DNA of 64,000 nucleotides from Bacteroidaceae bacterium (GTDB taxonomy: Bacteria > Bacteroidota > Bacteroidia > Bacteroidales > Bacteroidaceae): positions 48,342-112,341 of the forward strand of contig CAADWS010000004.1 of NCBI GenBank assembly GCA_900752815.1. Reading direction: 5' to 3'. Position 1 is the first letter of the stretch, and each line of letters begins with the position of its first letter. Below the pieces are notes generated by a model. That model made no database searches, was not told the DNA's origin, and saw nothing but the letters and a program-made list of their open reading frames with translations. The position numbers and the translations under genes were made by a program. Positions 9,913 to 40,400 of the stretch are shown one piece after another.

Positions 9913-10889
9913 ATCATATTATTTATCATAGTTTCCAATTCTATTTGAATGCGTTCATCATCCATATCCTTCATGGCCAGAAATAAAGACAATTTGTCTA
10001 CAATGCCGTTTTTTGAGAAAAAACATGGATTGTAACGCCATATCTCTATGCGGGTCTCGCCATATTCCTTGTCTGTCCGGATTTGCAACCGTCGAGCTTC
10101 TTCTTTTGCAATGGCATAAGTGTCATTTTTTTCCTTGTTCAGCATTGAATATTCCGACAAGGCATTTACTCCACTAATACAAAATACTTCATCAGGCAGA
10201 CTATCGGTATATACAATCCGCTCGATGGGGTTCGCCAGGAACGGCAACATCCTGTCCCATAATTCACGCTTTTTGAACTGAAATATCATACTCTTTGTCT
10301 TGCCGCCGGATAAAGCGATAACTTCTTTATCTTTCAGCCATCTGACCGCCCGGTTTACATTGGCATACGACACGTTGAAAAGATCTGCAATATCATAAGT
10401 TCCTTTCCCTTCGAGAGACTTTACTTCAAGATGATAAAGGATTATGCATTGGGCAATTGCAGGAATCTGCGTTTCTTCACCGCCCCCGATATTATTTTTA
10501 TGCGGTTTCAAATCTATCAACAAATCCGGTATGAACATTTGCTTTTGCGGTATGATGAAATTTACACGATGTCTGACAAGACGCCGTACATTATAGGCCG
10601 CCACTGTACGCAATACAAATATTACCGGGCATTGGGCTTTTCGCTCAACCAGTTCTTTTTGTTTCCGCATCTGCCCCGGAGTATATGCAGAACTGTCTGC
10701 ACTATACAGAAGAACTACGTCATGCCCCAACAAGTTAGCCGTACAAAATGTATAACCGGCAGTAATATTGGCTGGGAATGTATGCAAGACATCCTTTTCG
10801 ACCGGCCTGATGTCCGCCCTCAAATCAAGCAATTCAGCGATGTACCGGCTTGTCACATCTATAAAATCATCTATTTTGCACATAATCAT
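9906..10889 (-). CDS. Winged-helix regulator, AbiEi-like partner of the nucleotidyltransferase
   Basis: 327 residues. Residues ~1-150 form an alpha/beta region (VIFVLRTVAAYNVRRLVRH, then VNFIIPQKQMFIPDLLIDL) that I do not recognise as an enzyme; residues ~160-200 are a MarR-type winged helix (YDIADLFNVSYANVNRAVRW with wing KEVIALSGGKT). The C-terminal ~120 residues resemble a sensor or partner-binding domain. It is first in the reversed operon and overlaps the nucleotidyltransferase gene by 7 bases. As in AbiE systems it could repress the operon and neutralise the nucleotidyltransferase. A Bacteroidetes-type promoter lies just upstream. Confidence 0.6.
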   Translation of the reverse strand: MIMCKIDDFIDVTSRYIAELLDLRADIRPVEKDVLHTFPANITAGYTFCTANLLGHDVVLLYSADSSAYTPGQMRKQKELVERKAQCPVIFVLRTVAAYNVRRLVRHRVNFIIPQKQMFIPDLLIDLKPHKNNIGGGEETQIPAIAQCIILYHLEVKSLEGKGTYDIADLFNVSYANVNRAVRWLKDKEVIALSGGKTKSMIFQFKKRELWDRMLPFLANPIERIVYTDSLPDEVFCISGVNALSEYSMLNKEKNDTYAIAKEEARRLQIRTDKEYGETRIEIWRYNPCFFSKNGIVDKLSLFLAMKDMDDERIQIELETMINNMIW

Positions 10890-19103: not shown

Positions 19104-19123
19104 AAGTAATATCATTGTCTTTG

Positions 19124-25348: not shown

Positions 25349-25371
25349 ACGACATGTCTTACAACGAATAC

Positions 25372-25402
25372 GAGGGTGCCAAATACTTTTTGGGACACCC
25401 TC
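25372..25402. terminator. Bidirectional terminator between fibre gene and btuD
   Basis: GAGGGTGCCAAA (25372-25383) pairs with TTTGG and CACCCTC (25389-25393, 25396-25402), with a two-base GA bulge and a five-base loop. It separates the + strand fibre gene from the end of the - strand btu operon and could terminate both. Confidence 0.55.
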
Positions 25403-25433
25403 ATTGCGTCTGACGTGTTTCCCGACAGGAAAG

Positions 25434-26198
25434 TCAGTCTCTTGGCATGGATTTCACGATCCCGCTCACGGGGTCGAATTGTACGGCGGCATTGTTGAAC
25501 AGCCGCTCGATATGCCCGCTGCGGATCATTTCGGAGGTCGGCAGACAGTGAAGGACGGGCGTATCGATAAGGGCTATTCTGTCACTCAGCGAGAGGGCTA
25601 TATCCAGTTCGTGAGTGGAGAACAGAATGCATTTGCCCTCAGCATGCGCTAACCGTGCGAGCAGGGAACACAATTCGTAACGGTTGGGCATGTCAAGAAA
25701 CGAGGTCGGCTCGTCCAACAGGATGACGGGCGTTTCCTGAGCCAGAGCACGGGCTATCATAATGCGCTGGCATTCACCGTCCGACATCTTATCCATCGTG
25801 CGGCCGGCATACGCCTCCATTCCGACCGAAGAGAGCGACCGCATGACGATTTCCCTATCTTGAGGCTGCATGCGGCCGATCCAGTTGGTGTAAGGGGCGC
25901 GGCCGATAGCCACGACATCCTCGCACCGCAGGTTGGCGATGCGTGTGCGCTCGGTCGTGACAAATGCCAGTTGCCTTGCCTTCTCCGGAGTTCTCATGTT
26001 TGCGATACAATGTCCGTCGAGCAGGATTTTACCGCAATAATTATGATTCAGTCCGGCTATGGCACGGAGAAGTGTAGATTTCCCCGTGCCGTTCCTGCCA
26101 ATAAGGGCAGTCAGCTGTCCTCTTTTGAAAGAGGCATCGACCTTATCGAGAAGCCTCTTCTCTGCGTAGCCTATGGAAAAATCGCACAGTTCTATCAT
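25434..26198 (-). CDS. btuD: Corrinoid ABC transporter ATP-binding protein
   Basis: 254 residues, cytoplasmic ATPase that drives B12 import through BtuC. Walker A is GRNGTGKSTLLRAI (residues ~36-49), Q-loop region near RIGRMQPQD, ABC signature MSDGECQRIMIARAL (LSGGQ variant 'MSDGE'), Walker B VILLDEPTS and the H-loop FSTHELDI. It belongs to the FecE/BtuD siderophore-cobalamin class. The start overlaps the end of btuC by 4 bases. It is the last gene of the operon, and its stop lies close to a bidirectional terminator. Cobalamin rather than haem or siderophore specificity is taken from the riboswitch and the BtuB/BtuG/BtuH partners. Confidence 0.9.
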   Translation of the reverse strand: MIELCDFSIGYAEKRLLDKVDASFKRGQLTALIGRNGTGKSTLLRAIAGLNHNYCGKILLDGHCIANMRTPEKARQLAFVTTERTRIANLRCEDVVAIGRAPYTNWIGRMQPQDREIVMRSLSSVGMEAYAGRTMDKMSDGECQRIMIARALAQETPVILLDEPTSFLDMPNRYELCSLLARLAHAEGKCILFSTHELDIALSLSDRIALIDTPVLHCLPTSEMIRSGHIERLFNNAAVQFDPVSGIVKSMPRD

Positions 26199-27175
26199 AC
26201 CGTCATCGATTTATTGCGTAAAACCACCCATACGACTATCGGGATTCCCAGCAGTGCGGTAATGGCATTTACGGGCAAAGTGAACATTTTGGAAACGATA
26301 TCGCAAAGAAGCAATACCGCCGCCCCCGAGAGAAGGGTTCCCGGCAGGAGCACGCGGTGGTCGGCCTCGCGGAAGAGCATCCGCGCGACGTGAGGCATGG
26401 CAAGACCGATGAAGCCGATCGGGCCGCAGAAAGCCGTTACCGTGCCGGCCAGCAGCGTCGTCGAGAGAAACAGCAGACCGCGCGAACGGCGGATATTCAG
26501 TCCCATCGTTACGGCATATTCCTCGCCGAAGAGCAGGAGGTTGAGCGGTTTGATCGTCCATACGGCCAGCAGCAACCCGACGATGACCGACGGAAGGAGG
26601 ATGGCGAGCTGCGGCACCGTCACGTCGCCGAGCGACCCCATCGTCCAGATGACGAACGCCTTTAACGCCTCCTCTTTGCTCAGATATTGCAATATCTGCA
26701 CGACAGCGCTCACGCCTGACGAGAACATCATACCCAAAATCAATATCACCATAATGTCCTTTATGCGGTGTCCGACGGCAGCGATTACGAGCAGCACGAC
26801 GGCCGCACCCAGCCAAGCCGCTCCGGCGATGCCTATCGACGAGCCGACGCCTGCCAGCACCACGAGCGCCACGCCGAGGCTTGCACCCGAGCTGATGCCC
26901 AGCACGTAGGGGCCGGCCAGCGGATTGCGGAACAATGTCTGCATCTGCAAGCCGCTGACCGATAGCGCCGCCCCGGCCAGCAGAGCCACAACCGCCTTTA
27001 TCAGCCGTATGTTCAGTACGATTTTCGCCGTAGTCCGCGGGCAGTCGCCGCCCGTCAGGGCCGCCCATACGTCGCCGACGGGAATGCGAACCGCGCCCAC
27101 AGCCAAATCCAACAGGAAGAGGCCGACCGTAAGCACGGACAACGCGGTGAACAGGATGACGGGGCGTGAACGCAT
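26195..27175 (-). CDS. btuC: Corrinoid ABC transporter permease
   Basis: 326 residues with about ten hydrophobic segments, the FecCD/BtuC topology. Recognisable are LRLIKAVVALLAGAALSVSG near residue 50 (RL..A...GA.L..SG), RNPLAGPYVLGISSGASLGV (the 'NPLA.P..LG.s.GA..G' family signature) and GFIGLAMPHVARMLFREADHR, the cytoplasmic loop that contacts the ATPase. It forms the inner-membrane channel. btuF ends one base before its start codon, btuD begins inside its end. The N-terminal residues form the first membrane segment (VILFTALSVLTVGLFLLDLA). Confidence 0.9.
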   Translation of the reverse strand: MRSRPVILFTALSVLTVGLFLLDLAVGAVRIPVGDVWAALTGGDCPRTTAKIVLNIRLIKAVVALLAGAALSVSGLQMQTLFRNPLAGPYVLGISSGASLGVALVVLAGVGSSIGIAGAAWLGAAVVLLVIAAVGHRIKDIMVILILGMMFSSGVSAVVQILQYLSKEEALKAFVIWTMGSLGDVTVPQLAILLPSVIVGLLLAVWTIKPLNLLLFGEEYAVTMGLNIRRSRGLLFLSTTLLAGTVTAFCGPIGFIGLAMPHVARMLFREADHRVLLPGTLLSGAAVLLLCDIVSKMFTLPVNAITALLGIPIVVWVVLRNKSMTV

Positions 27176-28315
27176 CTATTTCAGTTGTTTGTAGTATACG
27201 AAATCTTCTTCGACCAACTCGGGGTGGAATATCTTCACGAGGTCGCGCAGAAGAAGGTCGGGATTCACGACGGCCGATTCGTAGTAGTCGTTGCCTCCGG
27301 CGGCATTGGTGCGGGCGTTGTTGTTATAGACATAGCCGTTTCGGACGCAGCGGGTATCGGCGAACTTCGGGCAGGCGGCTTTCAGTTCGTCGAGTGTGTT
27401 CGCCATGCCGACGTTCAGCCACATATCGGCCTCCGAAGCGAGCAGGTATGCCTCCTCCAAGTCGATAGGCGTCGAAGAGTTGCCCGTGTTCTTCTTGTAG
27501 ATGTAGTCGCCTCCGGCGTCGGTAATCAGCCGCACGGCATAGTTTTCCGTCGAGGGCATGAACCACGAATCGCCGTAGGGCGTATTGAGCATGACCGACG
27601 GGGCATCGAGAACGGCACCGGACACTTTCTGTTTCAGCGCATTGTATCGGATCGGAATATCCGCGAATACCTTTTCGCCCTTCGCGCGTTTCCCGACGAC
27701 CTCCGAAAGCGCCACCAGCCATTCGGCTTTGCCCAGCGGAGATTCTTCGAGATAATCGCCGACATACATGAACGGGATGCCGAGCTCCTTGAGTTTGCTC
27801 TCCATCGCACTGGCCCCGTTCACGCCGAAAAGCAGCACAAGGTCAGGGTCGAGCGACAACAGAAGTTCATAATTGATATTTCCCTCGTAACCCACGTCGC
27901 CGATGCTGTCGCGGCGTGCCTGAATGTCGGGATTGGAGATATAGTCGAGTCCCGAAACGCCGACCACACGTGCCGTCTCGCCGATGGCGTCGAGCATGGC
28001 GATATGGGTCGAGGACATCGCCACGATGCGCTGCGCATCCCCTTCGAGGACCTGCCCGTCGAAACCCTCGGGAACGGGTTCCCCGTTACGGGAGATGAAC
28101 AACCGGGTGGTGACGCTATCCGCGCCCTGCCACGGATTCATGACGGAAACCAGCACGCTCTGTCTGCCGTCTGCTCTTTCAATCTTGAATCCCGAGGCAT
28201 ATTCGGGAGCGTAAAGCTGTTTGTTGAAATCGGCAAGTTGGGAACTCTTGCCACGACAGCCTGCAAATGCCAGCGCAAGCAGCACCATCAGGCTCAAATT
28301 CTTTAATACTTTCAT
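27176..28315 (-). CDS. btuF: Periplasmic corrinoid-binding lipoprotein
   Basis: 379 residues. Lipoprotein signal peptide with lipobox (LALAFAGC, Cys near residue 20). The fold is a class III periplasmic binding protein: RIVAMSSTHIAMLDAIGET (residues ~90-110) and the later LDPDLVLLFGVNG and DAGGDYIYKK strands, joined by a long backbone helix. It delivers corrinoids crossing the outer membrane to BtuCD. It lies directly upstream of btuC and 24 bases downstream of btuB. The N-terminal extension (residues 25-90, with ADGRQSVLVSVMNPWQGAD) is usual in Bacteroidetes homologues. Confidence 0.88.
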   Translation of the reverse strand: MKVLKNLSLMVLLALAFAGCRGKSSQLADFNKQLYAPEYASGFKIERADGRQSVLVSVMNPWQGADSVTTRLFISRNGEPVPEGFDGQVLEGDAQRIVAMSSTHIAMLDAIGETARVVGVSGLDYISNPDIQARRDSIGDVGYEGNINYELLLSLDPDLVLLFGVNGASAMESKLKELGIPFMYVGDYLEESPLGKAEWLVALSEVVGKRAKGEKVFADIPIRYNALKQKVSGAVLDAPSVMLNTPYGDSWFMPSTENYAVRLITDAGGDYIYKKNTGNSSTPIDLEEAYLLASEADMWLNVGMANTLDELKAACPKFADTRCVRNGYVYNNNARTNAAGGNDYYESAVVNPDLLLRDLVKIFHPELVEEDFVYYKQLK

Positions 28316-28339
28316 ATCATTACCTTATTTACGTTTACA

Positions 28340-30397
28340 TTATTTTCTGCTTTTCCCGAATTTCGGGGTGATGCCGATGAAGAACTCGAAGTTGATGCCG
28401 GGCATAGGACGCGACAGCACCGAGAGATAGTCCTCGTTGAACAGGTTATTGACGGCAAGTTTCAACTGTACATCCAGCGGTTTGAACGACAGCATTTTCT
28501 CCAGTGAGATATTGCTCATGAAATACCGGGGCAGGTGGCCTGTCAGCGTGTAATCGTTGCTCGACATGGTGAAACGTTCCGAGTAGTAAGCCCACTTGTA
28601 GAGGAACGCCCACGTCCGCCATGACAGCCGTCCTGTCAGCGAGGCGGAGTGCTCCGGCACGTAAGGCAGTTGTTTTCCCACCGACTGGTCGGCGGGCGAC
28701 ATCTTTTCGCCCTCGTTGATGGAGGGGGTCCACGAATAGGAACCGTTCAGGTCTATCAGCCAGTCCTTTGCCGGCTGCACGGCAAGGTTGGCCTTCACTT
28801 CGACACCGTAGGCATGGACTTTCTTCACGTTGCGCGGCGAGAAGAACCCCTTGGTCGTCGGCAGCCAGATGATCCAGTCGTCGATGTAGGAGTCGAACCA
28901 GCTTGCGCTGCCGCCCAGTTTATATACCCCCTTTTTGCCGACATCGAAACTCACTCCGGCGTCATAGCTGAAGCCGTGTTCGTTTTTAAGGTCGGGGTTG
29001 CCGCCCGGCAGAAAGTAGAGGTCGTTCAAAGTCGGAAAACGATAGTTGCGCGATACGGAGGCTTTCACCATCACGTTCCCTTTGCGCGAAATCAGTCCGT
29101 CGATGAAGAATGCCGGGATGAGCGGAGCCCATTTGTCGCCCGACATCTCCTCGCGCAAGACCAGCGACAAGCCCAACGGCTCGACAGGCTGCCATTTGGC
29201 CGATACAGAACCGGAGAGCTCGACACGCCCCTTGTCATATCCGACGACGGCTTTGTTGCCATCCTGAAGGATGATGTTCTTGTCTTCGCTGCGCACGAGA
29301 TGCTGGTACACGGATACGTTCGAGGTGAAGAACCATTTCCTGCCGGGCGAGTATTCCGCTTCCGCCTGTCCGTAGAACGTGTTTATCTTGCTCCGCGAAC
29401 GGGTCATGGAGGCCCAGTTGTCCGGCGCCACCTCACGACGGTAGTCGTAGGCCATCCACGTATGGATATAACCGCCTTTCACGCCGACTTTCCATTTCTC
29501 TTTGATATGGTCCCATGACAGGACACCACGAAACGTCTGCTCCCGCTGGCGGTTCTCGAAGGCGGTCTCATCGCCGTAATCGGTCGTGAGCATCGGCAGT
29601 TCCCGGTTGGAGTTGATATACCATGCGTTCAACCCGAAACGGTCGCCTTTCAGGGTGTTGTAATATACCTCCTGCAACAGGTGCAGGTCCTTGAACGAAC
29701 CCGATCGGTTGCGTTCCTTGGGATGATACTGTCCGATGATGTTCTTCTCCTCGTCGTAGATATTTATCTTCTTGTCGTGGTTGGTGTACTTGTAATCGTT
29801 GGGCGACGACGAATAGACCGCGCGGGTCGAGACCTGCCATCGGTCGCTGCCGTAGGTGAAGCGGGCGAACTCGTCGAACGTGCGGAACGACCCGATGCCC
29901 TGCACGTATTGGGCATGGAAGCCCTCGCCGACCTGCGGCGTAGTACCGAGTTTGACAAGTCCGCCGAGTCCGCCGCCCGTTTCATTCACCGACGACGTGC
30001 CATGAAGCAGCGAGGCCTGATCTATGAAGTAGGACGGTATGGTGGAAAAGTCGGTCATACCCAGCATGGGATTGTTGATGCGCATGCCGTTCCACGTCAC
30101 CTGCGTGTGGCTGGGCGACGTGCCGCGGAAAGCAACGGTGGAGAGCGTGGCGCGTCCGTAACTCTTGACGAACACGGACGAATTGAACGTCAGAATGTCG
30201 GCCATCGATAAGGCAATGTTCTCTTTCAGTGCGAGCGAGTCGAACTTCGTCTTCTGCACGCCGATTTCTTTCATCGGGCGTTTGCCCCACACCGTGACCT
30301 CGTCTATCTGGTGGATGCGTCGTGTGATTCCCTGCGCGGACAATACGGACGGACAGACGAGCAGTAGCGAGAAAAGTATGTATTTCGTATAAATCAT
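28340..30397 (-). CDS. btuB: TonB-dependent corrinoid receptor
   Basis: 685 residues. Signal peptide (LFSLLLVCPSVLSAQG), then an N-terminal TonB-box-like segment IDEVTVWGKRP, a plug domain (SMADILTFNSSVFVKSYG ... STVAFRGTSPSHTQVTWNG, residues ~65-125) and a 22-strand barrel ending in an aromatic-rich terminal strand (NFEFFIGITPKF). Plug and barrel lengths fit BtuB-type receptors rather than SusC proteins. It moves corrinoids through the outer membrane powered by TonB. In Bacteroides the BtuB barrel is capped by the surface lipoprotein BtuG; btuG is two genes upstream here, separated by a small transposase-like gene whose end overlaps the start of btuB by 4 bases. Confidence 0.9.
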   Translation of the reverse strand: MIYTKYILFSLLLVCPSVLSAQGITRRIHQIDEVTVWGKRPMKEIGVQKTKFDSLALKENIALSMADILTFNSSVFVKSYGRATLSTVAFRGTSPSHTQVTWNGMRINNPMLGMTDFSTIPSYFIDQASLLHGTSSVNETGGGLGGLVKLGTTPQVGEGFHAQYVQGIGSFRTFDEFARFTYGSDRWQVSTRAVYSSSPNDYKYTNHDKKINIYDEEKNIIGQYHPKERNRSGSFKDLHLLQEVYYNTLKGDRFGLNAWYINSNRELPMLTTDYGDETAFENRQREQTFRGVLSWDHIKEKWKVGVKGGYIHTWMAYDYRREVAPDNWASMTRSRSKINTFYGQAEAEYSPGRKWFFTSNVSVYQHLVRSEDKNIILQDGNKAVVGYDKGRVELSGSVSAKWQPVEPLGLSLVLREEMSGDKWAPLIPAFFIDGLISRKGNVMVKASVSRNYRFPTLNDLYFLPGGNPDLKNEHGFSYDAGVSFDVGKKGVYKLGGSASWFDSYIDDWIIWLPTTKGFFSPRNVKKVHAYGVEVKANLAVQPAKDWLIDLNGSYSWTPSINEGEKMSPADQSVGKQLPYVPEHSASLTGRLSWRTWAFLYKWAYYSERFTMSSNDYTLTGHLPRYFMSNISLEKMLSFKPLDVQLKLAVNNLFNEDYLSVLSRPMPGINFEFFIGITPKFGKSRK

Positions 30398-30891
30398 TTG
30401 ATTCCGTTTTTAGGGTGGGTATTCGCGGAAAAATGTACCGTGGAGGATGCCGGCACGGACGTTTGATGCGGGTCGAACCCATTCTCTTCAAGCAGTTGTC
30501 CGTATTCTTCCTCGAACGAGATCTCCTGATGGATTGTATGCTGCTCCTCGATGTGCCGTCTGAGCCGGTGAAGGTCGCTGAACGACACGCTGAACGAGTC
30601 GAATCCGGCAGCCCAACCGGAGAAGTCGGCATATTCCGGGGTTTTCTGGTATACCGTTCCCGTGGCGCCTTTCACCTTGTTCACGATCTTGCTGAAATCC
30701 CCGGAATTCGGAATCTCGACAAGTACATGCACGTGGTTGAGAAAGGCATTGGCGGCATGTACGCGGCAACCTTTCCCTGTAAAAATCCGTGTCATCCGCT
30801 CGAGCATCAATCCTTTTCCCGTTGTCGGAATCGTCATCTTGCGTCCTTTGGTAACGAAGATGAGATGGTATAGGTGTCGTATCCTGCCCAT
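30394..30891 (-). CDS. REP-associated tyrosine transposase-like protein, probably inactive or domesticated
   Basis: About 165 residues of the Y1 HUH (IS200/RAYT) fold: starts MGRIRHLYHLIFVTKGRK, with the HUH metal motif HVHVLVEIP near residue 55. The usual end of the domain is a 'YI..Q..HH' helix whose Tyr is the nucleophile; here it reads LRRHIEEQHTIHQE, so His stands in the Tyr position. Either the protein no longer cuts DNA or a different residue is used. No left or right end structures or flanking REP repeats are obvious. It lies between btuG and btuB with overlapping ends, so it is co-transcribed and translationally coupled, which argues for a retained function in the operon rather than a recent insertion. 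Confidence 0.7.
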   Translation of the reverse strand: MGRIRHLYHLIFVTKGRKMTIPTTGKGLMLERMTRIFTGKGCRVHAANAFLNHVHVLVEIPNSGDFSKIVNKVKGATGTVYQKTPEYADFSGWAAGFDSFSVSFSDLHRLRRHIEEQHTIHQEISFEEEYGQLLEENGFDPHQTSVPASSTVHFSANTHPKNGIK

Positions 30892-31961
30892 CACTTCCAA
30901 CAAAATGCGCCGGGGATTATCCCGACATAGAATTCATCGATCAGTTCACCTTCGGACGAGTAGCGGTAGACAATGCCCTGCTGCTGGTAGTCGATGGCAT
31001 CGGCCACGTAGACATCGCCACGCACGGGGTCGACGGTCAGGCCGTAATAAATCGTACCGCTGTATTCGAGGAACGGGCGCACGGGAACACGTTCCGCATC
31101 CACGTCCATCGACCATATGTCCTTGTTGATCCAGTAGAGCTTGTCGCCCGTACCGTTGAGCTGCACCTCCGAAGGCCAGTCGCCCATCTTGAACTTGAAC
31201 TGCTTCTCTACGGTGAACGTCTCGGCATCGATGCGGTAGAGAGACGGGGCTTCGTAGCCGTAGGGCGAACCCTCGTACCCACCGTCGGTGATCGTCCACA
31301 TCTTGTGGTTCTTGTCCATTACCAGCGAGGTGGGCTGGATGCCGACTTTCAGTTCTTCTACCACCTGATCCGTTTCGGTATCGATCTTGATGATGCGGTT
31401 TTGGTACGACCAGCAGTTGCAATAGACATATTTGCCATACTGCACCATCTGCTCCGTGGAGCCGCTTTCCATCGTCATGTCCGGCACCTGGATGTAACCG
31501 GTGATTTCATATTTCTTGGGGTTGATGATGAAGATGCGGTTGTCCCACAATTGGGTGACATAGGCTTTCTCGTCGCTGAGGAAATGGATATAGCGCGGCG
31601 AAGTCAGGTTCGTGATACGGCCCACCTCTTTGAACGTATTGAGGTCGATGGCGAAAATCACGTGGGAATTGTTCACCACGACCCAGCCCTTATTGTCGTG
31701 GATGCACATCGATTGCGCCACGTCGCCCAGCTTCATGCCGTTGGCACGGAAGAACACTTCATTCTGCACCTGTTGGGTTTCGGGGTCGTAGTACGACAAC
31801 GTGGCATTGCCGTACTGGAAGTTGCCCTCGTTGGTGATGAACAACCCGGCTCCGGTAGCGTTGAAATCTTCCACCGCATCTCCGTAGTCCCACTCCATGC
31901 AGCCCGCCAGCAACAGCGGCAACCCGCATAGAAGAATGATATGTCGTATCAGATGTTTCAT
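30891..31961 (-). CDS. btuG: Surface corrinoid-capturing beta-propeller lipoprotein
   Basis: 356 residues. Lipoprotein signal peptide (LLCGLPLLLAGC). The rest is a seven-bladed YncE-like/DUF5074 propeller: repeating strands such as GLFITNEGNFQYGNATLSYY, RYIHFLSDEKAYVTQLWDN, IQPTSLVMDKNHKMWTITDG, YYGLTVDPVRGDVYVADA. BtuG proteins of gut Bacteroidales bind cobalamin extremely tightly and sit on BtuB as a lid (family knowledge). The gene is upstream of btuB in the same operon, with only the small transposase-like gene between them. Opening GNFQYGN and closing GIIPGAFCWK match the family's usual ends. Confidence 0.9.
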   Translation of the reverse strand: MKHLIRHIILLCGLPLLLAGCMEWDYGDAVEDFNATGAGLFITNEGNFQYGNATLSYYDPETQQVQNEVFFRANGMKLGDVAQSMCIHDNKGWVVVNNSHVIFAIDLNTFKEVGRITNLTSPRYIHFLSDEKAYVTQLWDNRIFIINPKKYEITGYIQVPDMTMESGSTEQMVQYGKYVYCNCWSYQNRIIKIDTETDQVVEELKVGIQPTSLVMDKNHKMWTITDGGYEGSPYGYEAPSLYRIDAETFTVEKQFKFKMGDWPSEVQLNGTGDKLYWINKDIWSMDVDAERVPVRPFLEYSGTIYYGLTVDPVRGDVYVADAIDYQQQGIVYRYSSEGELIDEFYVGIIPGAFCWK

Positions 31962-32032
31962 TGGCTTGTTATAAACGGGAAAGAGTACCGGTCTTTCGGC
32001 CAGTACCCTGTTCCCTTGTAAAATAATGGGTG

Positions 32033-34159
32033 TTACTGCTGGGTATAGCGACCGGCTTGCATATCCTCGTAGGTGGGGTTATAACCGCAATTGGTTACAA
32101 GCCAGTCTTCTTTCTTGATTTGCTCTTCTTCTACAAAAGATTTGAAGAACGTATAATCAACAAACCGTGTCAACCGGATAAATCGAACTCCTGAGAGTTT
32201 TGTTAAAGTTGGCATATTGAAAGTCGTAAGCGATGCTGCATTTGCAGCACAAAGTGTTCCATCAATGGCCTGCAATTTGGGGCATGAAATAGTTTTTACG
32301 GCACGAACAGTCATACCAACACCCCCGACATGTTCCAATGACGGAAATGTAAAATCTTTATTTGATGCCATAAAATCTAAAGAACCATATAAAATATTAT
32401 TAATCACCCCTTCTTTGATATATTGAGGATTGCTTGAACAACCGACTGACTTTAAATTCGTAAAATCATAATCATAGTTAGAAACAGCGTTCAGATTACC
32501 GATAATACATAACTGACCTCCGACAATTTCCAATTTCGGGAACGAGATATTGTTTGCCATTGTAGTTTCGATGCTTAAATATCCATCTACACTTACCAAG
32601 TTAGGGGCTGAAACGCCTTTTTTTGAACCTCTTATAATTTCCATATTCCCGTAAACTCGTTCAAATTGGAATACAGGATCTGTTGTCATATTGCTAGAAT
32701 ACTTAAAATTCTTAATACTCTTAAAATTCAATTCTGGATCTATTCCAACACTTGAACCGGTAATACCGCTCGGAGCTAGAAACATGCTAACTTGCGACAT
32801 ATCCTCTTTTGTGATAATTTTTGAGAATATAGTCCCGTCTGTAATAGAAATTAAAGGTTCGTTATCCTCAAAAGGTACAAAATTTACTTTGCTCAAATCT
32901 AAAATTCGATCAGAACACTCCAATAAACGCAGCAAGGTCAGTCCTCCGAGTTGTTCTAATTTACTCCAATCCGGTAATTTTTTCAAGACTTGGAATTTAG
33001 ATATTGTCAATGTGCCTTTAACAATCGACAAGTTAGACAGTCCATCTATTTCTTGTAATTTATTATTTCCCGTAGATGTAAAAGCATCGGACGCAATATA
33101 ACTGGAAACGAGATTAAGGTCGCCGTTTACTACCGATAATTCCGGCAATGAAAGGGTCTCCAACGGAATCGGTATAGAAGCAAAATCCACACTTCCAACT
33201 TCTTGTAATTTCGGAAATTCCAAAGAAATCATTTTGCCTAAATTATTAACCCCTAAGCGACCGTTTACTTTTGTCAATTCAGGAATTCTCAAAGATGTGA
33301 TTTCTCCTCCTGGTTCTCCGTCACTTGTCAGACACTGGAGATCAAAATCCTTTACGACAGTGGTTAATTTAGGGAATTCAAAACTTTGTAGAGATGAAGT
33401 CCTGAATATTATATTTCCATCAATCGTTTCAAGGTTGTCGAATTGCACATATGCTACTTGATTGTTGCAGACAACGATGTCGCCAGTAATATGCTGCAAA
33501 GATCTCATACTGACCATCTGCAATTTACTGTTGGTCGCAAAGGCAGTTTCAGTTCCTATTTGCAAACCTCCAATTGAAGTGATATTATCAAGTCCCGTAA
33601 GATCTTGTCCAACATAACTTTTCCGAATGATGATGTTTCCTTCGACTTCCTTCAATATTTTTAATGCGGCGATATCCGACAATTCTTCTGCATCCTCAGC
33701 ATCCGACCCGATAATCAAATCACCTTTGATAACCGTTACGTCCGTATCAATGAAAGCCGTAACATCCGCTGTTGTCTTCAATTCCACATCCCCTTCATAG
33801 CGAATCTCGTCTTTAATGACTTTATATGTATAATCATTCGCTTCTCCATTGTAAGAGGTTACACGAAACGTTCGTTCCGTATCCCAGTCAGTAATGCTTG
33901 CCGGATCGGGAATAATTGTTGCCGAGGATGTGTATTTGAATTCGACTTGAGCATTATTTAACGAAACAGTATATGGAACTGTTATGGTAATTATATTGTC
34001 AATTATTTCCGCTGTATAGGATTGACTTGCCACAGTCATCACGACTGATGTGATAAAATTGTCATCGGCATCAGCAGGACTTTCTGGAGTCTGATTATCT
34101 TCTGAACATGATAAAAAAAGAAATGGGGCAATGAATAGTAAAAGCCAAAACTGTCTCAT
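32033..34159 (-). CDS. Leucine-rich-repeat surface lipoprotein in the B12 operon
   Basis: 708 residues. Lipobox LFLSC at residues ~14-18. Residues ~35-115 are a DUF5018-like Ig domain (SVVMTVASQSYTAEIIDN ... RTFRVTSYNGEANDYTYKV), followed by a long receptor-L/LRR-type solenoid (LKILKEVEGNIIIRKSY, LTGLDNITSIGGLQIG, SLQSFEFPKLTTV, SLEFPKLQEVGSVDFASI). Related LRR lipoproteins occur in Bacteroidetes corrinoid loci next to btuG and btuH and may hold or scavenge corrinoids at the surface, but binding is not proven for this one. Visibly AT-rich compared with btuBCDFG. One base separates it from the gene upstream, so it is in the same transcript. Confidence 0.7.
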   Translation of the reverse strand: MRQFWLLLFIAPFLFLSCSEDNQTPESPADADDNFITSVVMTVASQSYTAEIIDNIITITVPYTVSLNNAQVEFKYTSSATIIPDPASITDWDTERTFRVTSYNGEANDYTYKVIKDEIRYEGDVELKTTADVTAFIDTDVTVIKGDLIIGSDAEDAEELSDIAALKILKEVEGNIIIRKSYVGQDLTGLDNITSIGGLQIGTETAFATNSKLQMVSMRSLQHITGDIVVCNNQVAYVQFDNLETIDGNIIFRTSSLQSFEFPKLTTVVKDFDLQCLTSDGEPGGEITSLRIPELTKVNGRLGVNNLGKMISLEFPKLQEVGSVDFASIPIPLETLSLPELSVVNGDLNLVSSYIASDAFTSTGNNKLQEIDGLSNLSIVKGTLTISKFQVLKKLPDWSKLEQLGGLTLLRLLECSDRILDLSKVNFVPFEDNEPLISITDGTIFSKIITKEDMSQVSMFLAPSGITGSSVGIDPELNFKSIKNFKYSSNMTTDPVFQFERVYGNMEIIRGSKKGVSAPNLVSVDGYLSIETTMANNISFPKLEIVGGQLCIIGNLNAVSNYDYDFTNLKSVGCSSNPQYIKEGVINNILYGSLDFMASNKDFTFPSLEHVGGVGMTVRAVKTISCPKLQAIDGTLCAANAASLTTFNMPTLTKLSGVRFIRLTRFVDYTFFKSFVEEEQIKKEDWLVTNCGYNPTYEDMQAGRYTQQ

Positions 34160-34160
34160 A

Positions 34161-35969
34161 TTATTGATTATTAGTTATTGATAAGTCTTCAAATGAAAAT
34201 ACTTCTGTGGATATCTCTCCAAGCCAACCACTTTTCGATAATACTCCACACTGAACTTTGATAAAGTCTATATATTGCAATTTTACTGGAGTCCCGTCAT
34301 GATATATTGCATTGGCTATTTTGAATCCGTTGCGCTGACCGCTACCATCAATGACATTTCCTCCTACCAGATTATCTGAACCCATATTATCCACATACCC
34401 CCACTCATAAGCGTTATTCGCCCAATATCCTGTAACGGGATCTTGATTGTTGCGAGGAGTCAGACGCGTCCCATATAATGTATAGCTATCTTCTTTAATC
34501 CAATTGGGATAATAATATTCTTGGCCATGGTATGCATTCATATCGACAGAACCTGAATTACCTTCACTATCTACCCACGGAGTATGTGCTCTGGGTGCAG
34601 GTCTATAGTAAGTTACTTCGTAGTCTTGTATTGTACCATCGATGCCGGTTTCAGATCCTTTTAATTCATACCATTCATCGTCTGGCTGGCCATTGCCATT
34701 TATATCTTGCATTACCCAAACAATGCCCGGCTCATTTGAGCCACCGCTCGAACTGTTAAAAGCATTTCCTTGTATTGCAAAATCGTATTCTCGGCCACTC
34801 GGAGCAATACTATGGTCAAAACCGATGATGATATAACCACCGAAAGATCCCAGTGAAACATGCGCTTTTTTGTTCAATCGTTTCGTTGCATACTCTATGG
34901 CTTGTTGGGGCGTCGTTTCATTTCCTATAAATCCGGTATTTTGGGATAACTCATTAATAAACTGTCCGGGAGCAGGAATGAATTCATAAACCTTATCCCA
35001 AATACCTGAACTTGTCGCTGTCGCTTGCCGATAGCGTTCTTGTTCCGTTTTTTCTTCACAAATAACCTTAACTGTCGTTGTAATTGAAGTATTACTACGT
35101 GTTATGTTACGTGAAAGTGGCTGTGTGTTGGGCATTTTTTCTGTAACAGTAACAGCAACGAAATATTCTCCAGGAGTCGTCGGCGTGAATTTAAAAACCC
35201 TGTCGGTAGCGGCTTCCATAATTTTTCCATTGACCTGCCATTGATACTGTGGATAATCGAAATATTCCAGCAAAGGCCGCAAATATACAGGACGCCCTGC
35301 AAAAGTATAACGATCCGTAGAAGTTTGTGTATAGGATGGTGTCGGAAACCGTACGGAATAAGGCATTGTTTCCACAACTTCTACGTCGAAATCACGGATT
35401 GTTTCTCCGTCTATATTGGATGCCCGGATTGTTATCGAATATGTACCGAGTTCTTTTTCGTGAAACGTATATGCTTTTTCTGTTCCGACGATTTCTCCAT
35501 CGCGTACCCATTCAATTCTAAAATTTTCAAGATCGTCATGTTGAATATCTGGAGATAAAATATAATCCGTGTTTTGAGGCACTTTTAATCCTTTAGAGGG
35601 GATTATGATTGAAATTGTAGGTGGAGTTAACTCCAATACTTCTACTTTTAACTCTTCTTCCGCATAACCCTCTGGTGTATCAACTCGCAATTTGATATAT
35701 AGATGTTGTTCCTGATTCCATGTATACTTCAATATTGATTCAGATGAAAGAAGTTTTCCATCTACTGTCCATGCATAAAGTGCATTATTCGCATATTTAT
35801 ATGTCGGGGCAATTGTCAGTTCACGCCCAACTTTGATAGTGTAAATGCCAGTCTCACTATCGAGTTCAATTATAGGAGCTTGTTTTATTTCTTCAGTAAT
35901 TACATCGTTCTTATTACAGCTTGTAATAAAAAACAAAAGTACAAGAATACTAAATATGAAAGCCTTCAT
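34161..35969 (-). CDS. PKD-repeat surface lipoprotein in the B12 operon
   Basis: 602 residues. Lipobox FFITSC (Cys near 18). Residues ~35-300 hold three PKD-like Ig domains (KYANNALYAWTVDGKLL; FRIEWVRDGEIVGTEKAY; YQWQVNGKIMEAATDRV). The C-terminal ~270 residues are a distinct domain (SLGSFGGYIIIGFDHSI, PGIVWVMQDINGNGQPDDEW, NGFKIANAIYHDGTPVKLQY) seen in Bacteroidetes 'cell surface proteins' found beside DUF4465 genes. Its presence between a btuH-like gene and an LRR lipoprotein suggests that it takes part in corrinoid capture or in assembling the surface complex; this is inference. AT-rich codon use like its two neighbours. Confidence 0.65.
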   Translation of the reverse strand: MKAFIFSILVLLFFITSCNKNDVITEEIKQAPIIELDSETGIYTIKVGRELTIAPTYKYANNALYAWTVDGKLLSSESILKYTWNQEQHLYIKLRVDTPEGYAEEELKVEVLELTPPTISIIIPSKGLKVPQNTDYILSPDIQHDDLENFRIEWVRDGEIVGTEKAYTFHEKELGTYSITIRASNIDGETIRDFDVEVVETMPYSVRFPTPSYTQTSTDRYTFAGRPVYLRPLLEYFDYPQYQWQVNGKIMEAATDRVFKFTPTTPGEYFVAVTVTEKMPNTQPLSRNITRSNTSITTTVKVICEEKTEQERYRQATATSSGIWDKVYEFIPAPGQFINELSQNTGFIGNETTPQQAIEYATKRLNKKAHVSLGSFGGYIIIGFDHSIAPSGREYDFAIQGNAFNSSSGGSNEPGIVWVMQDINGNGQPDDEWYELKGSETGIDGTIQDYEVTYYRPAPRAHTPWVDSEGNSGSVDMNAYHGQEYYYPNWIKEDSYTLYGTRLTPRNNQDPVTGYWANNAYEWGYVDNMGSDNLVGGNVIDGSGQRNGFKIANAIYHDGTPVKLQYIDFIKVQCGVLSKSGWLGEISTEVFSFEDLSITNNQ

Positions 35970-36022
35970 AATAAAAAAGGTATAGAACTGAAATCAGTTC
36001 TATGCCAAACTATATTAAATTG

Positions 36023-36982
36023 TTATTCTATTGTAACGTCGTCTATACAAAGATACGCCGGAGTATTGAGTCCATATATAGGATCGACATCAGATCCTTC
36101 AAAATTGAATTTTACACTTTGCACATCCGCTACATTAATATCCCAATATGTCCATGTAGTTACGGGGGACACTGTTGGTTTATCATATCGGTAGTCGGCC
36201 AACAATTTCGATACAGTGGTGATCAAATTTCCATCTACGTCATAACATTCGATGTTGACTTGGAAATATCCTATATTGTTGCCGTCAGAATCTTTCAGAT
36301 TACTCAACGGTGTTGCAACACCCGATGTTCCGAACTGATTACCATTTATAATCACACCATAGGTATATGCTGTGTTACAATACCATAAACCCTTGAATTT
36401 GCGAGGGGAGTCAAAATAGAATTCAGGTTTGGCCATCCACTCCGTATTTCCGAAATCAGAGTAGCCGTATACAACAGCAAAATTGGAACCGCTGTGACCT
36501 GCCCCTGTATTGGCCCCATCTGTGGATGCTGTATTATAGACACTACATTGATTCTCCCAAGTATACCACCAATTAGTTCCAGAAGTCTTGCCGGCAGCAG
36601 AATCAGAACGATAATTGTATTTCGACAACGCAATGGCACCACTGGAAAATTCAGTATACGCTCCATAAGAATTGGTTACAGTATTCATGTCGGAGACAAA
36701 CACAAAATCGGGATCGTATATTTCCCTGATTTGGTTCTCTGCAGTATATCCATAAAGCGTGTAGTAGTTCTCTGCTTTAGGCGAAACCGCCATGAATGTT
36801 TCATCGAAGTCATCGAATGTAATGGTTGTAGTGCCATCATCATTAAAGTTGGCTCGGGTTTCGGGAGTTACTGAATCAGTTTGAGGATTCATCAAAAAGT
36901 CATCGTCTGAATTACAGCCGGTGAACAGGGCGGTTGCCGTCAACAGGAAAGCTCCCGCCAGAAAGCGTAAATTTCTTTTCAT
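36023..36982 (-). CDS. btuH: DUF4465 surface corrinoid-binding lipoprotein
   Basis: 319 residues. Signal peptide with lipobox ATALFTGC (Cys near 23). The mature part is a beta-sandwich of the DUF4465 family: TTITFDDFDETFMAV, GAIALSKYNYRSD, GSNFAVVYGYSDF, FKGLWYCNTAYTYGVIING and the C-terminal KFNFEGSDVDPIYGLNTPAYLCIDD. DUF4465 includes BtuH, shown in gut Bacteroidetes to bind B12 at the cell surface (family knowledge). It is the first gene after a cobalamin riboswitch and terminator, so its expression is expected to be switched off when B12 is plentiful. The gene symbol follows family membership. Confidence 0.82.
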   Translation of the reverse strand: MKRNLRFLAGAFLLTATALFTGCNSDDDFLMNPQTDSVTPETRANFNDDGTTTITFDDFDETFMAVSPKAENYYTLYGYTAENQIREIYDPDFVFVSDMNTVTNSYGAYTEFSSGAIALSKYNYRSDSAAGKTSGTNWWYTWENQCSVYNTASTDGANTGAGHSGSNFAVVYGYSDFGNTEWMAKPEFYFDSPRKFKGLWYCNTAYTYGVIINGNQFGTSGVATPLSNLKDSDGNNIGYFQVNIECYDVDGNLITTVSKLLADYRYDKPTVSPVTTWTYWDINVADVQSVKFNFEGSDVDPIYGLNTPAYLCIDDVTIE

Positions 36983-37023
36983 AGCTTACTTGTTTTTTAA
37001 TAAAACATATTTTTAACAAACAC

Positions 37024-37061
37024 AAAAAATCCCGTTCGCGCAGGTTTACACGAACGGGATT
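37024..37061 (-). terminator. Riboswitch-controlled intrinsic terminator
   Basis: On the - strand AATCCCGTTCG (37061-37051) and CGAACGGGATT (37038-37028) form a perfect 11-bp stem with a 12-base loop, followed by a run of T (37029-37024). It lies between the cobalamin aptamer and the btuH start codon at 36982, the expected place for the expression platform. Confidence 0.85.
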
Positions 37062-37109
37062 ATGTTTGTCTTCAAATATGAGAATGACTCCTACGGCATT
37101 CCGTATCTG

Positions 37110-37313
37110 ATCGCAACCCGATTTTCTCCCGCGGGTGTAAATCCTTTTCCGGTCATGGCAGGTCTTCTGACTCGTCCCAGTCGTCGCGCCTTCCCAGCAT
37201 TACACCAGTGGCAGGTTGCGGCAACCTTGAGGGGACTTACAGCAGCGGGTACTGTCCCGGATTCTCACCGGATTCCCTTTTCATCCGTGGCGGCGAACCG
37301 CCCGGAACCATTT
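37110..37313 (-). promoter_or_regulatory. Cobalamin (B12) riboswitch aptamer
   Basis: Reading the - strand, the conserved core appears in order: AAAGGGAATCCGGTGAGAA then TCCGGGACAG and CCCGCTGCTGTAAG (about 37285-37235), a variable arm, and the B12-box-like AGTCAGAAGACCTGCC (about 37170-37155). These are hallmark cobalamin riboswitch segments. A possible -7 box TATTTTTG (37328-37321, - strand) gives a transcription start near 37314; I did not find a good -33 box. With the terminator at 37024-37061 this would stop transcription of the btu operon when corrinoid is bound. The length and order fit a class I aptamer. Confidence 0.9.
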
Positions 37314-37418
37314 CCAATTACAAAAATACAAATATTTTTTATAATAATATCATTTACACGAAAAAAAATCCGCAACCTGCCGGAATCATTCCGCACTATA
37401 CTTTCAGAAAAAGGTTTC

Positions 37419-40400
37419 ATGGCAAAGATTCTCATCGCCCGGGGACAGGCGACCATCTATGTCCAGAAGGACGGGTATACCATAACCCAGTCTTTGGGTG
37501 AATACGTGTTCCCCGCGGATGACACGGGGAAGATTCTCTCGTCCGTCACTCTCACCTCGACCGTACGGGTGATGTGCGGGGACGAGGAACTCACGGCCTT
37601 TACCATCGGTGCGGTGGGTAAGCCGGCGGGATTCTCATCCGTTACCGTCAATAACGGCACGAAGACCTTAACCTACGTTATCACCGCCGGTACGACGACC
37701 CTCGCCGACCACGGAACAATAGATATTCCCGTGACAATTTCCGGTATTGTCTATCATCTGTCGTTCGTCTGGTCGAAAGCCAAGGCGGGTATCCCGGGCA
37801 AGGACGGGGTCGATGCCGACATGCTCGACTGGGTCAAGGAGTGGAATACGGGTAAGACGCTCATCAACGGCAACACGGTCATCACCCCCAAACTCTTTGC
37901 GGGCACGAAAAACAGCGACGGCACCGTCTCCGGGATAGCCATAGGCTCGTTTACACTCAATACGAAGACCTCCTCGGGAACGATCGCCGCAGAGGCGGTA
38001 AACGGCATCTATGGATTTAGGGATGGCTACAAAACCTTCTATGTAGATAACGGCGGTAACGCCCAGTTGGGTTATGGCGACCAGTATGTCAGGTATAACG
38101 CCACGACAGGCAAGGTCGAGTTCGGCAGCGGAGTGAGTCTGAACTGGGTCGGTGCGACCTACATCGACAAGGACGGCGTCTTTACCGGAACACTCTCGGC
38201 CGATACGATTAAGACGATTTCCATCAGTGCTTCCCAGATCACATCGGGGATTATCGCTGCGGCACGCATCGACACGGCGGCGTTGAAAGCCTCCTTGATT
38301 ACCGCCGGAAACATCGAAGCTCTGACCTTGAACGTTACAAAAGGGAAAATCGGCGGCTGGACGGTGGATGCCGACTCCCTTTACCGGGGTACGAAGAACA
38401 ACACTGTGGGGAGCTGCACCTCTGCCGCAGGTAGCATTACGCTCGGCTCGAACGGTATCCGGGGCTATAAATGGCGGCTGGATGCCTCGGGAGCCGGAGC
38501 GGTCGCGGGCGGCAACATCGCGTGGGACGCTTCGGGCAACGTCACGTTCGCCTCGACGGTCAGTGCCTTGTGGACGGCACCTATCGGCTCCCTCACCACG
38601 GCTTTGGGCGGCAGCGGCTATCCCAAGCTGACGAAGATCACGGCCGACGGAATCTATACCGGCAGTATCACCGCCTCGCAGATTACCGCAGGAACCATCT
38701 CCGCCGACCGCATAGCGGCAGGCAGTATAGCGGCCTCGAAGCTCGATGCCGCCAGCATCAGGTCCTCCATCATCAACACGGACTATATCAACGGCCTGAG
38801 CTGTACCTTCACCAAAGGAAAAATCGGCGGCTGGATGATCGGGGCTTCGGCCCTCACTGCCACGCATATCTCGATAGACAGCGGCAACAGACGCATCGCG
38901 GTGTACGGGGCCAATTCGGGTGTCGCTAGCGGGCAGCGGGTGCAGCTCTACTACAACAGCGACACGGACTTCGGGCTCTATACCACGGACAGTGCAGGGT
39001 ACTGCGTGGCACAGCTGGGTTCGAGCAACAGCATAGCCGGCTGGACGATCGACACGACTTCCATTCGCAAGGGCAACGTGTCGCTGGGCAGCGACGGCTC
39101 GATCATCAACTCCACGAAATGGAAACTGAACAACGACGGTTCGGGGCAGATCGCCTCGGGCAACATTGCATGGGACACTGCCGGGAACGTTACGTTCGGG
39201 GCTTCCGTATCGCTGCAATGGAAGAACGACATCGAAGCGGCCAAGGTTACGAACTTCGGCTATCGATATTACAAGAAACTCATCATCAACGGCGACGAAG
39301 CGACCTATTATCCAGTCGTTTTCAAAGGTGGCGACCAGAACATCAAACGTACCATTCTCGTCCGTCGGGGATATGCCGAGCAGGCTCCGGTCTCGTGGAA
39401 CACATCCACGCACAAAGGAGGTCTGATCGTACTTATCAAAACCAACTTCGGCGGTTGGGGTGGCATTGCCTATTCATGGGATATCTATGACCTTTCCGAG
39501 ACCTACTGCCGGATGTTCGCCGGGGCGCAGCTGTGCGGCAACTACTGCATGTTCGCCGTCTTCCTGCGTGGCGGCGGCGATACGGGTGCCGTGTACCACC
39601 TCTACTCCGACCAGCCGATAGAGAGCAGCAGTTATAGTCCTTCGCCGATTCCGGCAGCTCCGCAAATCGCTTACGGCAACGACCTTATCTTCCAGAGCGG
39701 TTCCACACAAGCCTATGCCCCCGCGCCGCGCACCCTCACGGCTGCCGTCGAGGAGGAGATCCGCCGCCATCGGTTCATTGCTCTGGCGCAAAGCACGGAC
39801 AGCACGCTTGCGGCGCACCCGCTGACCTATATCGGCTCGACAGGGATTTACACGGGCACCCTTACCGCGGCGCAGGTCAACGCCGTGGCGATCGATGCCG
39901 GCAGTATCAAGACGGGAACACTTTCGGCAGACCGTATCGCCGCGGGCAGCATCAGCGCCTCGAAACTCGATGCCGTGGGTATCAAGTCGTCCATTATCAA
40001 TACCGATTACATCAACGGTCTCAGCTGCACGTTCACGAAGGGCAAGATCGGCGGTTTCTCCATCGGCAGTGACAACATGACCATAGGGAACGTCGGAGCT
40101 GTGGGTGCCATCCCGTTGCAAATCCGTTCCGCCTCCACGGGCAGCGGTTACTGGTACACGGGAGCCTACAAGCCGCTGGGTATATGCCTTACGTGGTATC
40201 AGAGCAGCAATGCAGGGCATATCGTCCTCGGGCAGGTGGCGGCATCCGGCAACAGTGTCAAGACCGGATTCATAGGTCTTCAGATGATGTCATGGGACAA
40301 TCTGGAATACTTCTGCCTCTCGGTGAACTATACCAAAAGCGGCAGCAAGGAGGTATACAACCGTATCGCGGGGTGGGCCTTCGACCACAACCATATCTGG

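What the first reader, a model, noticed from the sequence alone, without database searches (positions are those of the whole stretch)
25434..37330. Complete riboswitch-controlled vitamin B12 uptake operon inside a phage tail module
A - strand locus with cobalamin riboswitch, DUF4465 (BtuH), PKD and LRR surface lipoproteins, BtuG, BtuB, BtuF, BtuC and BtuD lies between phage fibre genes at 24038-25348 and 37419-42188, with baseplate genes continuing on both sides. Phages carrying single metabolic genes are common; a full outer-membrane-to-cytoplasm corrinoid import system is not something I know of. Corrinoids are limiting and competed for in the gut, so a lysogen could gain corrinoid capture. 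Seen: gene order and motifs. Known: BtuB/BtuG/BtuH families import B12. Inferred: phage-mediated spread.
Basis: partly seen in the sequence, partly recalled or inferred. Interest (0 to 1): 0.97.

Follow-up and report, generated by a model that had tools for sequence, protein, structure and literature searches.

The report
Phage-borne vitamin B12 uptake operon
A 158-kilobase prophage of gut Bacteroidales carries, between two of its tail-fibre genes, an intact operon predicted to capture and import vitamin B12, and near-identical copies sit in four bacterial genomes and one faecal virus record, so the phage likely spreads vitamin uptake between species.

Summary
The window lies inside a 158-kb prophage (G000:C11:1334203-1492318) with portal, tail, replication, terminase and integrase genes, built like the isolated Bacteroides phage BS-TP1. 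Between two fibre genes stands a minus-strand operon (25434-36982) behind a cobalamin riboswitch (113.8 bits): btuJ-btuH-btuL-btuG-(Y1 transposase-like)-btuB-btuF-btuC-btuD, the order of B. thetaiotaomicron operon 2 without btuX. It is no chimera: the same island with the same joins, about 99.95% identical, is in a genome of another family (G357), in Phocaeicola coprophilus DSM 18228, in Bacteroides propionicigenes NSJ-90 and in faecal virus record MT835494.1. A related phage has an empty site (60 bp) there; two more and BS-TP1 lack the genes. Nine of nine B12-pocket residues named in the passages I saw are kept in BtuG and BtuH. The P. coprophilus copy lost 68 kb, including terminase and helicase, but kept the operon. 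B12 operons on conjugative transposons are the closest known thing; a temperate phage is a new vehicle. Packaging, expression and benefit to a lysogen are untested.

The parts
37140..37327 (-). cobalamin riboswitch aptamer (RF00174), upstream of btuJ
   Evidence: 113.8 bits, E 9.5e-28, full model length; exact in 3 of 4 other copies, 1 mismatch in L021
37028..37061 (-). intrinsic terminator-like hairpin (15 pairs, then T run) between aptamer and first start codon; predicted expression platform
   Evidence: fold z -2.9 and -3.2; note that the whole region had 12 terminator-like sites, 12.5 expected by chance, but this is the one with by far the longest stem
37321..37328 (-). TATTTTTG, matches the Bacteroides -7 promoter consensus TAnnTTTG (consensus recalled); no clear -33 TTTG seen
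   Evidence: six such matches on this strand in the 12.2 kb scanned, so weak on its own
36023..36982 (-). btuJ: DUF4465 B12-binding lipoprotein (BtuJ2-like)
   Evidence: (9i2l, 3.5e-113)
34161..35969 (-). btuH: PKD/BtuH B12-binding lipoprotein (BtuH2-like)
   Evidence: 7biz; 4 of 4 residues named kept
32033..34159 (-). lipoprotein with receptor-L (LRR-like) domain in the position of btuL
   Evidence: position of BtuL/BT_1955; no solved relative, so the name rests on position
30891..31961 (-). btuG: beta-propeller lid lipoprotein (BtuG2-like)
   Evidence: 5 of 5 pocket residues named kept
30394..30903 (-). Y1/HUH transposase-like ORF overlapping btuG and btuB ends; canonical Tyr (motif recalled) replaced by His
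   Evidence: (below NCBIfam cut-off)
28340..30397 (-). btuB: TonB-dependent corrinoid receptor (BtuB2-like)
   Evidence: 8bmx_C, 1220 bits
27176..28315 (-). btuF: periplasmic corrinoid-binding protein
   Evidence: PF01497; named by operon position, NCBIfam's only match is the heme protein IsdE far below cut-off
26195..27175 (-). btuC: permease
   Evidence: PF01032; best NCBIfam BtuC, below its cut-off
25434..26198 (-). btuD: ATPase
   Evidence: PF00005; best NCBIfam corrinoid ABC ATPase, below its cut-off
24038..25348 (+). left flanking fibre/tail gene (93% aa identical in empty-site relative)
37419..42188 (+). right flanking fibre gene; homology with empty-site relative resumes at 37393
25348..37393 (.). 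island as defined against the empty-site relative L008/L010 (60 bp there)

Best explanation
A 158-kb prophage of BS-TP1-like architecture carries an intact corrinoid uptake operon behind a cobalamin riboswitch at a fibre-gene junction, and the operon is predicted to serve the lysogen rather than the virion. Inferred mechanism: the operon is transcribed on its own, against the late genes, when intracellular corrinoid is low. Corrinoid binding to the riboswitch would favour the terminator hairpin before btuJ. BtuJ and BtuH would bind corrinoid at the cell surface (BtuJ in vesicles too), BtuG would hand it to BtuB as the lid of a pedal-bin complex, TonB-ExbBD of the host would power entry, and BtuF-BtuC-BtuD would carry it into the cytoplasm. 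The phage would profit because a better-fed lysogen outcompetes its neighbours. Shown: gene content and order, kept pocket residues, an empty site in a relative, near-identical copies in four genomes of several genera with differing host flanks, whole prophage in two of them. Inferred: expression, B12 import, fitness gain, packaging.
For: Copies: MT835494.1 matches window 1-38601 at 99.95% with no gap, island and both joins included; G357 carries it; P. coprophilus L021 and B. propionicigenes L022 at about 99.95%. Empty site: in L008/L010, about 80% DNA identity, 60 bp lie between the points equivalent to 25347 and 37393. btuB is absent from 4 of 4 IMG/VR relatives (two of the four differ by 1 base in 22 kb, so three distinct phages). 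All nine island ORFs lack a counterpart in those four and in 107 of 111.7 kb of BS-TP1, while most neighbours have one. Whole phage: integrase and terminase, terminase 59% and portal 61% aa to BS-TP1, terminase and DnaB present in G000, G357 and G395. Operon has B. theta operon 2 order minus BtuX. Nine of nine residues named in the passages seen are kept. dN/dS 0.05-0.16 for btuG, B, F, C, D against L023 and L025. No frameshift or internal stop in the nine genes of the four other copies, apart from an N gap in btuC of L021. In each of the four lysogens every other BtuB hit is at most 33% identical. 4 of 4 lysogens encode B12-binding-domain proteins. The P. coprophilus copy lost 68 kb, with terminase and DnaB found nowhere in that genome, but kept the operon.
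Against: No expression, uptake or virion data. MT835494.1 is labelled UNVERIFIED, is partial (no terminase, no element end), and the same submission holds btu fragments beside bacterial-looking genes (MT835658.1 with DnaB and Mur ligase, MT836240.1 with a transposase), so it does not prove packaging. NCBIfam names none of the operon proteins above a cut-off; its best scores for BtuB and BtuF are heme families. The dN/dS values compare lineages that split long before the near-identical phage copies, so they mostly record selection outside this phage. G000 has three other cobalamin riboswitches, so the operon may be redundant. No BtuG or BtuB relative came up in IMG/VR. The phage looks rare: a tail gene in 2 of 393 genomes of the order, G000 included; the fibre-btuD junction in 1 of 9 genomes of G357's family, G357 itself; this BtuB in 1 of 3 genomes of the window's genus, G000 itself. 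Near-identity of the copies fits one recent expansion, so they are few independent events.
Confidence: 0.84

Rival explanations
1. The cargo acts chiefly for the phage on the cell surface: phage-made BtuB/BtuG and lipoproteins, with the phage's own fimbria and capsule loci, change or mask receptors and block rival phages; corrinoid import is secondary.
For: The prophage also carries a fimbria-type locus and a capsule-type locus. BtuB is a phage receptor in enterobacteria (recalled; papers listed treat phage receptors and BtuB).
Against: The inner-membrane part (btuF, btuC, btuD) is present and intact in the copies with sequence there, and a corrinoid riboswitch fronts the operon; neither is needed for surface masking.
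Confidence: 0.07
2. Auxiliary metabolic operon for the lytic cycle: it raises corrinoid supply while the phage replicates.
For: Related phage BS-TP1 has an annotated ribonucleotide reductase; its class and any B12 need were not checked.
Against: The operon runs against the late genes with its own riboswitch; building outer-membrane receptors within one lytic cycle is a slow gain. Not every gene of this phage was annotated here, so an RNR in it is not excluded.
Confidence: 0.05
3. Assembly chimera, or a chromosomal or conjugative-element btu locus with phage scraps around it.
For: Related btu loci are mobile on conjugative transposons, and a sister locus, L023, sits beside a Mob_Pre relaxase.
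Against: Same joins in five sources; whole prophage with integrase and terminase; no CtnDOT_TraJ inside the element, though three elsewhere in G000; empty site in a relative.
Confidence: 0.02

Closest known systems
Bacteroides thetaiotaomicron cobamide uptake operon 2 (BT_1957-BT_1949; btuJ2-H2-L-G2-B2-F-C-D-X)
   Same: Same gene order, cobalamin riboswitch, named pocket residues of BtuH and BtuG kept
   Different: Lies in a prophage; no room for btuX in the 85 bp after btuD; extra Y1 transposase-like ORF between btuG and btuB; two-part GC (0.52-0.61 against 0.38-0.42)
B12 transport loci on Bacteroidetes conjugative transposons (Frye et al. 2021; paper not held; seen only in a citing passage, PMC9239041)
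   Same: Whole corrinoid transport locus on a mobile element, spread between species
   Different: Vehicle is a temperate phage with capsid, tail and terminase genes; no TraJ in the element
Bacteroides phage BS-TP1 (PQ571274.1)
   Same: Same backbone order; about 28-63% aa identity over most matched structural and replication genes
   Different: 111.7 kb; no island gene found in the 107 kb compared
Phage morons / lysogenic conversion cargo (general knowledge)
   Same: Own leader, intergenic, opposite strand, absent from relatives
   Different: Nine ORFs making an outer-membrane-to-cytoplasm import system instead of one or two genes

Membership tests
BtuB2G2-type corrinoid uptake operon | cobalamin riboswitch leader | tested here: met
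BtuB2G2-type corrinoid uptake operon | adjacent btuG and btuB homologous to the solved complex | tested here: met
   (8bmx chains D and C); here a Y1 ORF lies between them
BtuB2G2-type corrinoid uptake operon | B12-pocket residues conserved | tested here: met
   BtuG 5 of 5 and BtuH 4 of 4 of the residues named in the passages seen; other contacts not checked
BtuB2G2-type corrinoid uptake operon | btuF, btuC, btuD present | tested here: met
   by Pfam; NCBIfam cut-offs for BtuC and BtuD not reached
BtuB2G2-type corrinoid uptake operon | btuX present (as in B. theta operon 2) | tested here: not met
   85 bp between btuD and the fibre gene; btuX is a feature of that one operon, not a defining part of the transport machinery
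BtuB2G2-type corrinoid uptake operon | imports corrinoid | not testable with these tools
   needs an uptake assay
BS-TP1-like temperate phage | homologous portal, head protease, tail tube, hub, fibre, replication genes in the same order | tested here: met
BS-TP1-like temperate phage | terminase large subunit and tyrosine integrase | tested here: met
   terminase 59% aa to BS-TP1, integrase only 29% over 36%
BS-TP1-like temperate phage | forms virions carrying the island | tested here: inconclusive
   MT835494.1 is consistent, but UNVERIFIED, partial and from a set with bacterial-looking fragments
conjugative transposon carrying B12 loci | conjugation genes in the element | tested here: not met
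   PF07863: 3 hits in G000, none in C11:1334203-1492318; only this one family was tested
lysogenic conversion cargo (moron) | dispensable for the phage: absent from relatives at the same site | tested here: met
   (three distinct IMG/VR phages and BS-TP1)
lysogenic conversion cargo (moron) | expressed from the repressed prophage | not testable with these tools
   needs RNA data

The most novel reading that the evidence does not exclude
A broad-range temperate phage acts as a travelling surface-upgrade kit for gut Bacteroidales: it brings a complete riboswitch-controlled B12 capture and import operon together with a fimbria locus and a capsule locus, gives the lysogen a BtuBG type that its chromosome lacks, and the operon outlives the phage, as in P. 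coprophilus, where terminase and helicase are gone and the operon stays. This would be the first complete vitamin import system known to be spread by a phage.
Probability: 0.55. Interest if true: 0.87.

Novelty: new variant of a known kind. Interest (0 to 1): 0.8.

Why it matters
Corrinoid capture is a main axis of competition in the gut, and receptor repertoires of Bacteroidales do not follow the species tree (citing passage). Conjugative transposons explain part of that; a temperate phage that carries the entire system would add a second route that needs no cell contact. It offers a directly testable case of phage mutualism: a nutrient import operon paying for lysogeny. Two of the four lysogens are named strains, so induction, packaging and deletion tests can be done.

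Tried and rejected
Chimera: rejected by five sources with the same joins. Disrupted btuC in P. coprophilus: the apparent insertion is a run of N. Phage limited to MT835494.1's 99.8 kb: rejected, the shared element is 158 kb in G000 and 156 kb in G357. P. coprophilus deletion as a scaffold error: no N at the junction, and terminase and DnaB found nowhere in that genome, while both are in the other three lysogens. Other phages with BtuG or BtuB in IMG/VR: three scans found none (near records may be left out). MT835658.1 and MT836240.1 as further btu phages: neighbours look bacterial. Attachment site in a tRNA: right ends seen in G000, G357 and G394 and left ends in G000, G357 and G395 have differing flanks; no direct repeat over 11 bp within 300 bases of the ends in the two genomes checked; no tRNA at the G000 ends, one tRNA-Phe 24 bases outside the G357 left end.

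Literature: ten searches; bear on phage-borne B12 or nutrient uptake, and no paper on a phage-borne btu operon was in the rows listed (listings are cut at 8-20 rows; the library holds open-licence papers only). PMC9004378 was a false lead: its cobalamin riboswitch belongs to the host. Papers seen as passages only: PMC8941943, PMC13398666, PMC12751083, PMC10404256, PMC8361208, PMC9239041, PMC10366088, PMC9004378. All others: search listings with abstract starts. Frye 2021: not held.
Full report
What is there. The window is G000:C11:1380069-1444068, minus strand, of a 4.41-Mb genome in 11 contigs. Pfam and PHROGs show a phage: Mu-type portal, MuF, head protease, DUF2586, PhageMin_Tail tape measure, two hub proteins, fibre/tail proteins, SMC/SbcC-like, sigma factor, DnaB, Toprim primase, Pol III alpha. 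Between fibre genes 24038-25348 and 37419-42188, on the minus strand, lies the operon with a full-length cobalamin riboswitch at 37140-37327, 113.8 bits. It is followed by a 15-pair terminator-like hairpin at 37061-37028 and the first start codon at 36982. TATTTTTG at 37328 resembles the Bacteroides -7 element (consensus recalled; no clear -33 element).

Gene identities. By solved-structure search the gene at 36023-36982 matches 9i2l (E 3.5e-113), which is BtuJ2; 34161-35969 matches 7biz (2.5e-225), BtuH2; 30891-31961 matches BtuG chains of 8bmx, 8p97 and 8okv; 28340-30397 matches BtuB chains 8bmx_C and 8p98_A. The B. theta operon 2 order BtuJ2-BtuH2-BtuL-BtuG2-BtuB2-BtuF-BtuC-BtuD-BtuX (passage of PMC12751083) is the order here, without BtuX and with a Y1 transposase-like ORF between btuG and btuB. 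BtuH2 Gln333, Asn399, Phe401, Leu578 (named) and BtuG2 Trp194, Tyr239, Trp272, Tyr316, Tyr335 (named) are all kept (alignments; letters checked). N-termini of btuJ, btuH, btuL, btuG and btuF look like lipoprotein signals (by eye). dN/dS is 0.05-0.16 for btuG, B, F, C, D against L023 and L025; it was undefined for btuH and btuJ, and btuL gave 0.33-0.39 at high divergence. NCBIfam gave no match above a cut-off for any operon protein, and its best scores for BtuB and BtuF are heme families.

It is a whole prophage. G000 and G357, a genome of another family of the same order, share C11:1334203-1492318 (158 kb) and C1:157909-313781 (156 kb), mostly at about 99-99.6% with mosaic segments of 85-97%. 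A tyrosine integrase stands at one end, then Terminase_3. Gene order follows the isolated Bacteroides phage BS-TP1, 111,694 bp, with for example portal 61%, terminase 59%, DnaB 48% amino-acid identity. Right-end flanks of G000, G357 and P. coprophilus and left-end flanks of G000, G357 and B. propionicigenes differ, so no common chromosomal target was seen.

Copies with the island. MT835494.1, a 99,778-base record from human faeces in Mexico labelled UNVERIFIED, is colinear with window 1-38601 at 99.95% without a gap. L021, Phocaeicola coprophilus DSM 18228, and L022, Bacteroides propionicigenes NSJ-90, carry island and fibre genes at about 99.95%. With G000 and G357 this makes five sources. 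In the four other copies compared no island gene has a frameshift or internal stop; L021 has a run of N in btuC. The riboswitch is exact in three of the four and has one mismatch in L021. The P. coprophilus prophage lacks the equivalent of C11 1337358-1405414 (68 kb) with a 25-bp overlap at the junction and no N there; terminase and DnaB of the phage are found in three of four lysogens and nowhere in P. coprophilus. It keeps the operon.

Copies without. IMG/VR records L008 and L010, which differ by one base in the 22 kb held, share about 80% DNA identity with this phage and have 60 bp at the fibre junction where the window has 12 kb. btuB is absent from 4 of 4 IMG/VR relatives, which may be fragments, and all nine island ORFs lack counterparts in those four and in the 107 kb of BS-TP1 compared. 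Of the 80 loci kept (of 124 confirmed) from the named-genome scan with BtuB, 2 have this phage's fibre genes within the flanks held. Of 50,697 phage records 3 match BtuB, one at 99.7% and two under 30%. Of 393 genomes of the order 4 have a relative of the left fibre gene, 2 of them at 100%, G000 included; 2 have the tail gene 7331-7786, again with G000. The fibre-btuD junction is in 1 of 9 genomes of G357's family, and this BtuB in 1 of 3 genomes of the window's genus, each time the known one.

Where the operon came from. In a quick BtuB tree of 80 rows (L021 not entered, one short locus dropped) the phage protein falls in a 9-row group (SH-aLRT 99) with loci of Bacteroides, Phocaeicola and Parabacteroides. 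The P. massiliensis locus L023 matches those of Bacteroides sp. GM023 and B. ndongoniae at 99.97% over 21-22 kb and lies beside a Mob_Pre relaxase, so the sister loci look mobile too. The phage operon is two-part: btuG to btuD GC 0.52-0.61, btuL-btuH-btuJ 0.38-0.42; against L023 the lipoprotein half is 28-46% identical and the other half 63-90%.

Host need. G000 has four cobalamin riboswitches, three outside the phage. In all four lysogens the other BtuB-like hits are at most 33% identical to the phage BtuB (thresholds 1e-3 and 1e-20), so the phage likely supplies a receptor type the chromosome lacks. B12-binding-domain proteins are present in 4 of 4.

Limits. The virus record does not prove packaging: it is partial, and two btu fragments of the same submission sit beside bacterial-looking genes. 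The paper that fits the record's origin (PMC8361208: filtered, DNase-treated particles, Mexican children) does not name the accession in its main text. There are no expression or growth data. The dN/dS values say little about selection inside the phage, whose copies are almost identical. IMG/VR scans may leave out near records.

Noticed in passing
window 30394-30903 (-): Y1/HUH transposase-like ORF inside the btu operon, overlapping btuG and btuB; HVH motif kept, canonical Tyr (motif recalled) is His here and in L023/L028/L056 but Tyr in L037/L038; dN/dS 0.118 against L023. Possibly domesticated.
   Followed up: partly
G000:C11:1362523-1375785 (window coordinates 68284-81546, beyond the window): Fimbria-type locus (integrase, DUF3868/OmpA, FimA) inside the same prophage, also in MT835494.1.
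   Followed up: partly
G000:C11:1343100-1359023 (window coordinates 85046-100969, beyond the window): Capsule-type locus (NusG/UpxY-like, Wzz-kinase, CpsB, UDP-glucose dehydrogenase, flippase, glycosyltransferases, epimerase) inside the prophage; MT835494.1 diverges within its Wzz gene.
   Followed up: partly
window 17913-19115 (-): TIR-domain gene, 36% GC, in another cargo slot between hub and fibre genes; no counterpart in the five relatives compared. Likely defence cargo.
   Followed up: no
window 8369-10889 (-): Three-gene low-GC cassette with a metallophosphatase, shared at 48-77% only with L008/L010's phage among those compared.
   Followed up: no
L017:1394-2665 (+): Reverse transcriptase (RVT_1), conserved in BS-TP1 (68%) and one IMG/VR relative (83%); possible diversity-generating retroelement.
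   Followed up: no
L154, G394:C58:211539-211563: 68-kb deletion in the P. coprophilus prophage with a 25-bp overlap at the junction, ending 1.7 kb from btuJ.
   Followed up: yes
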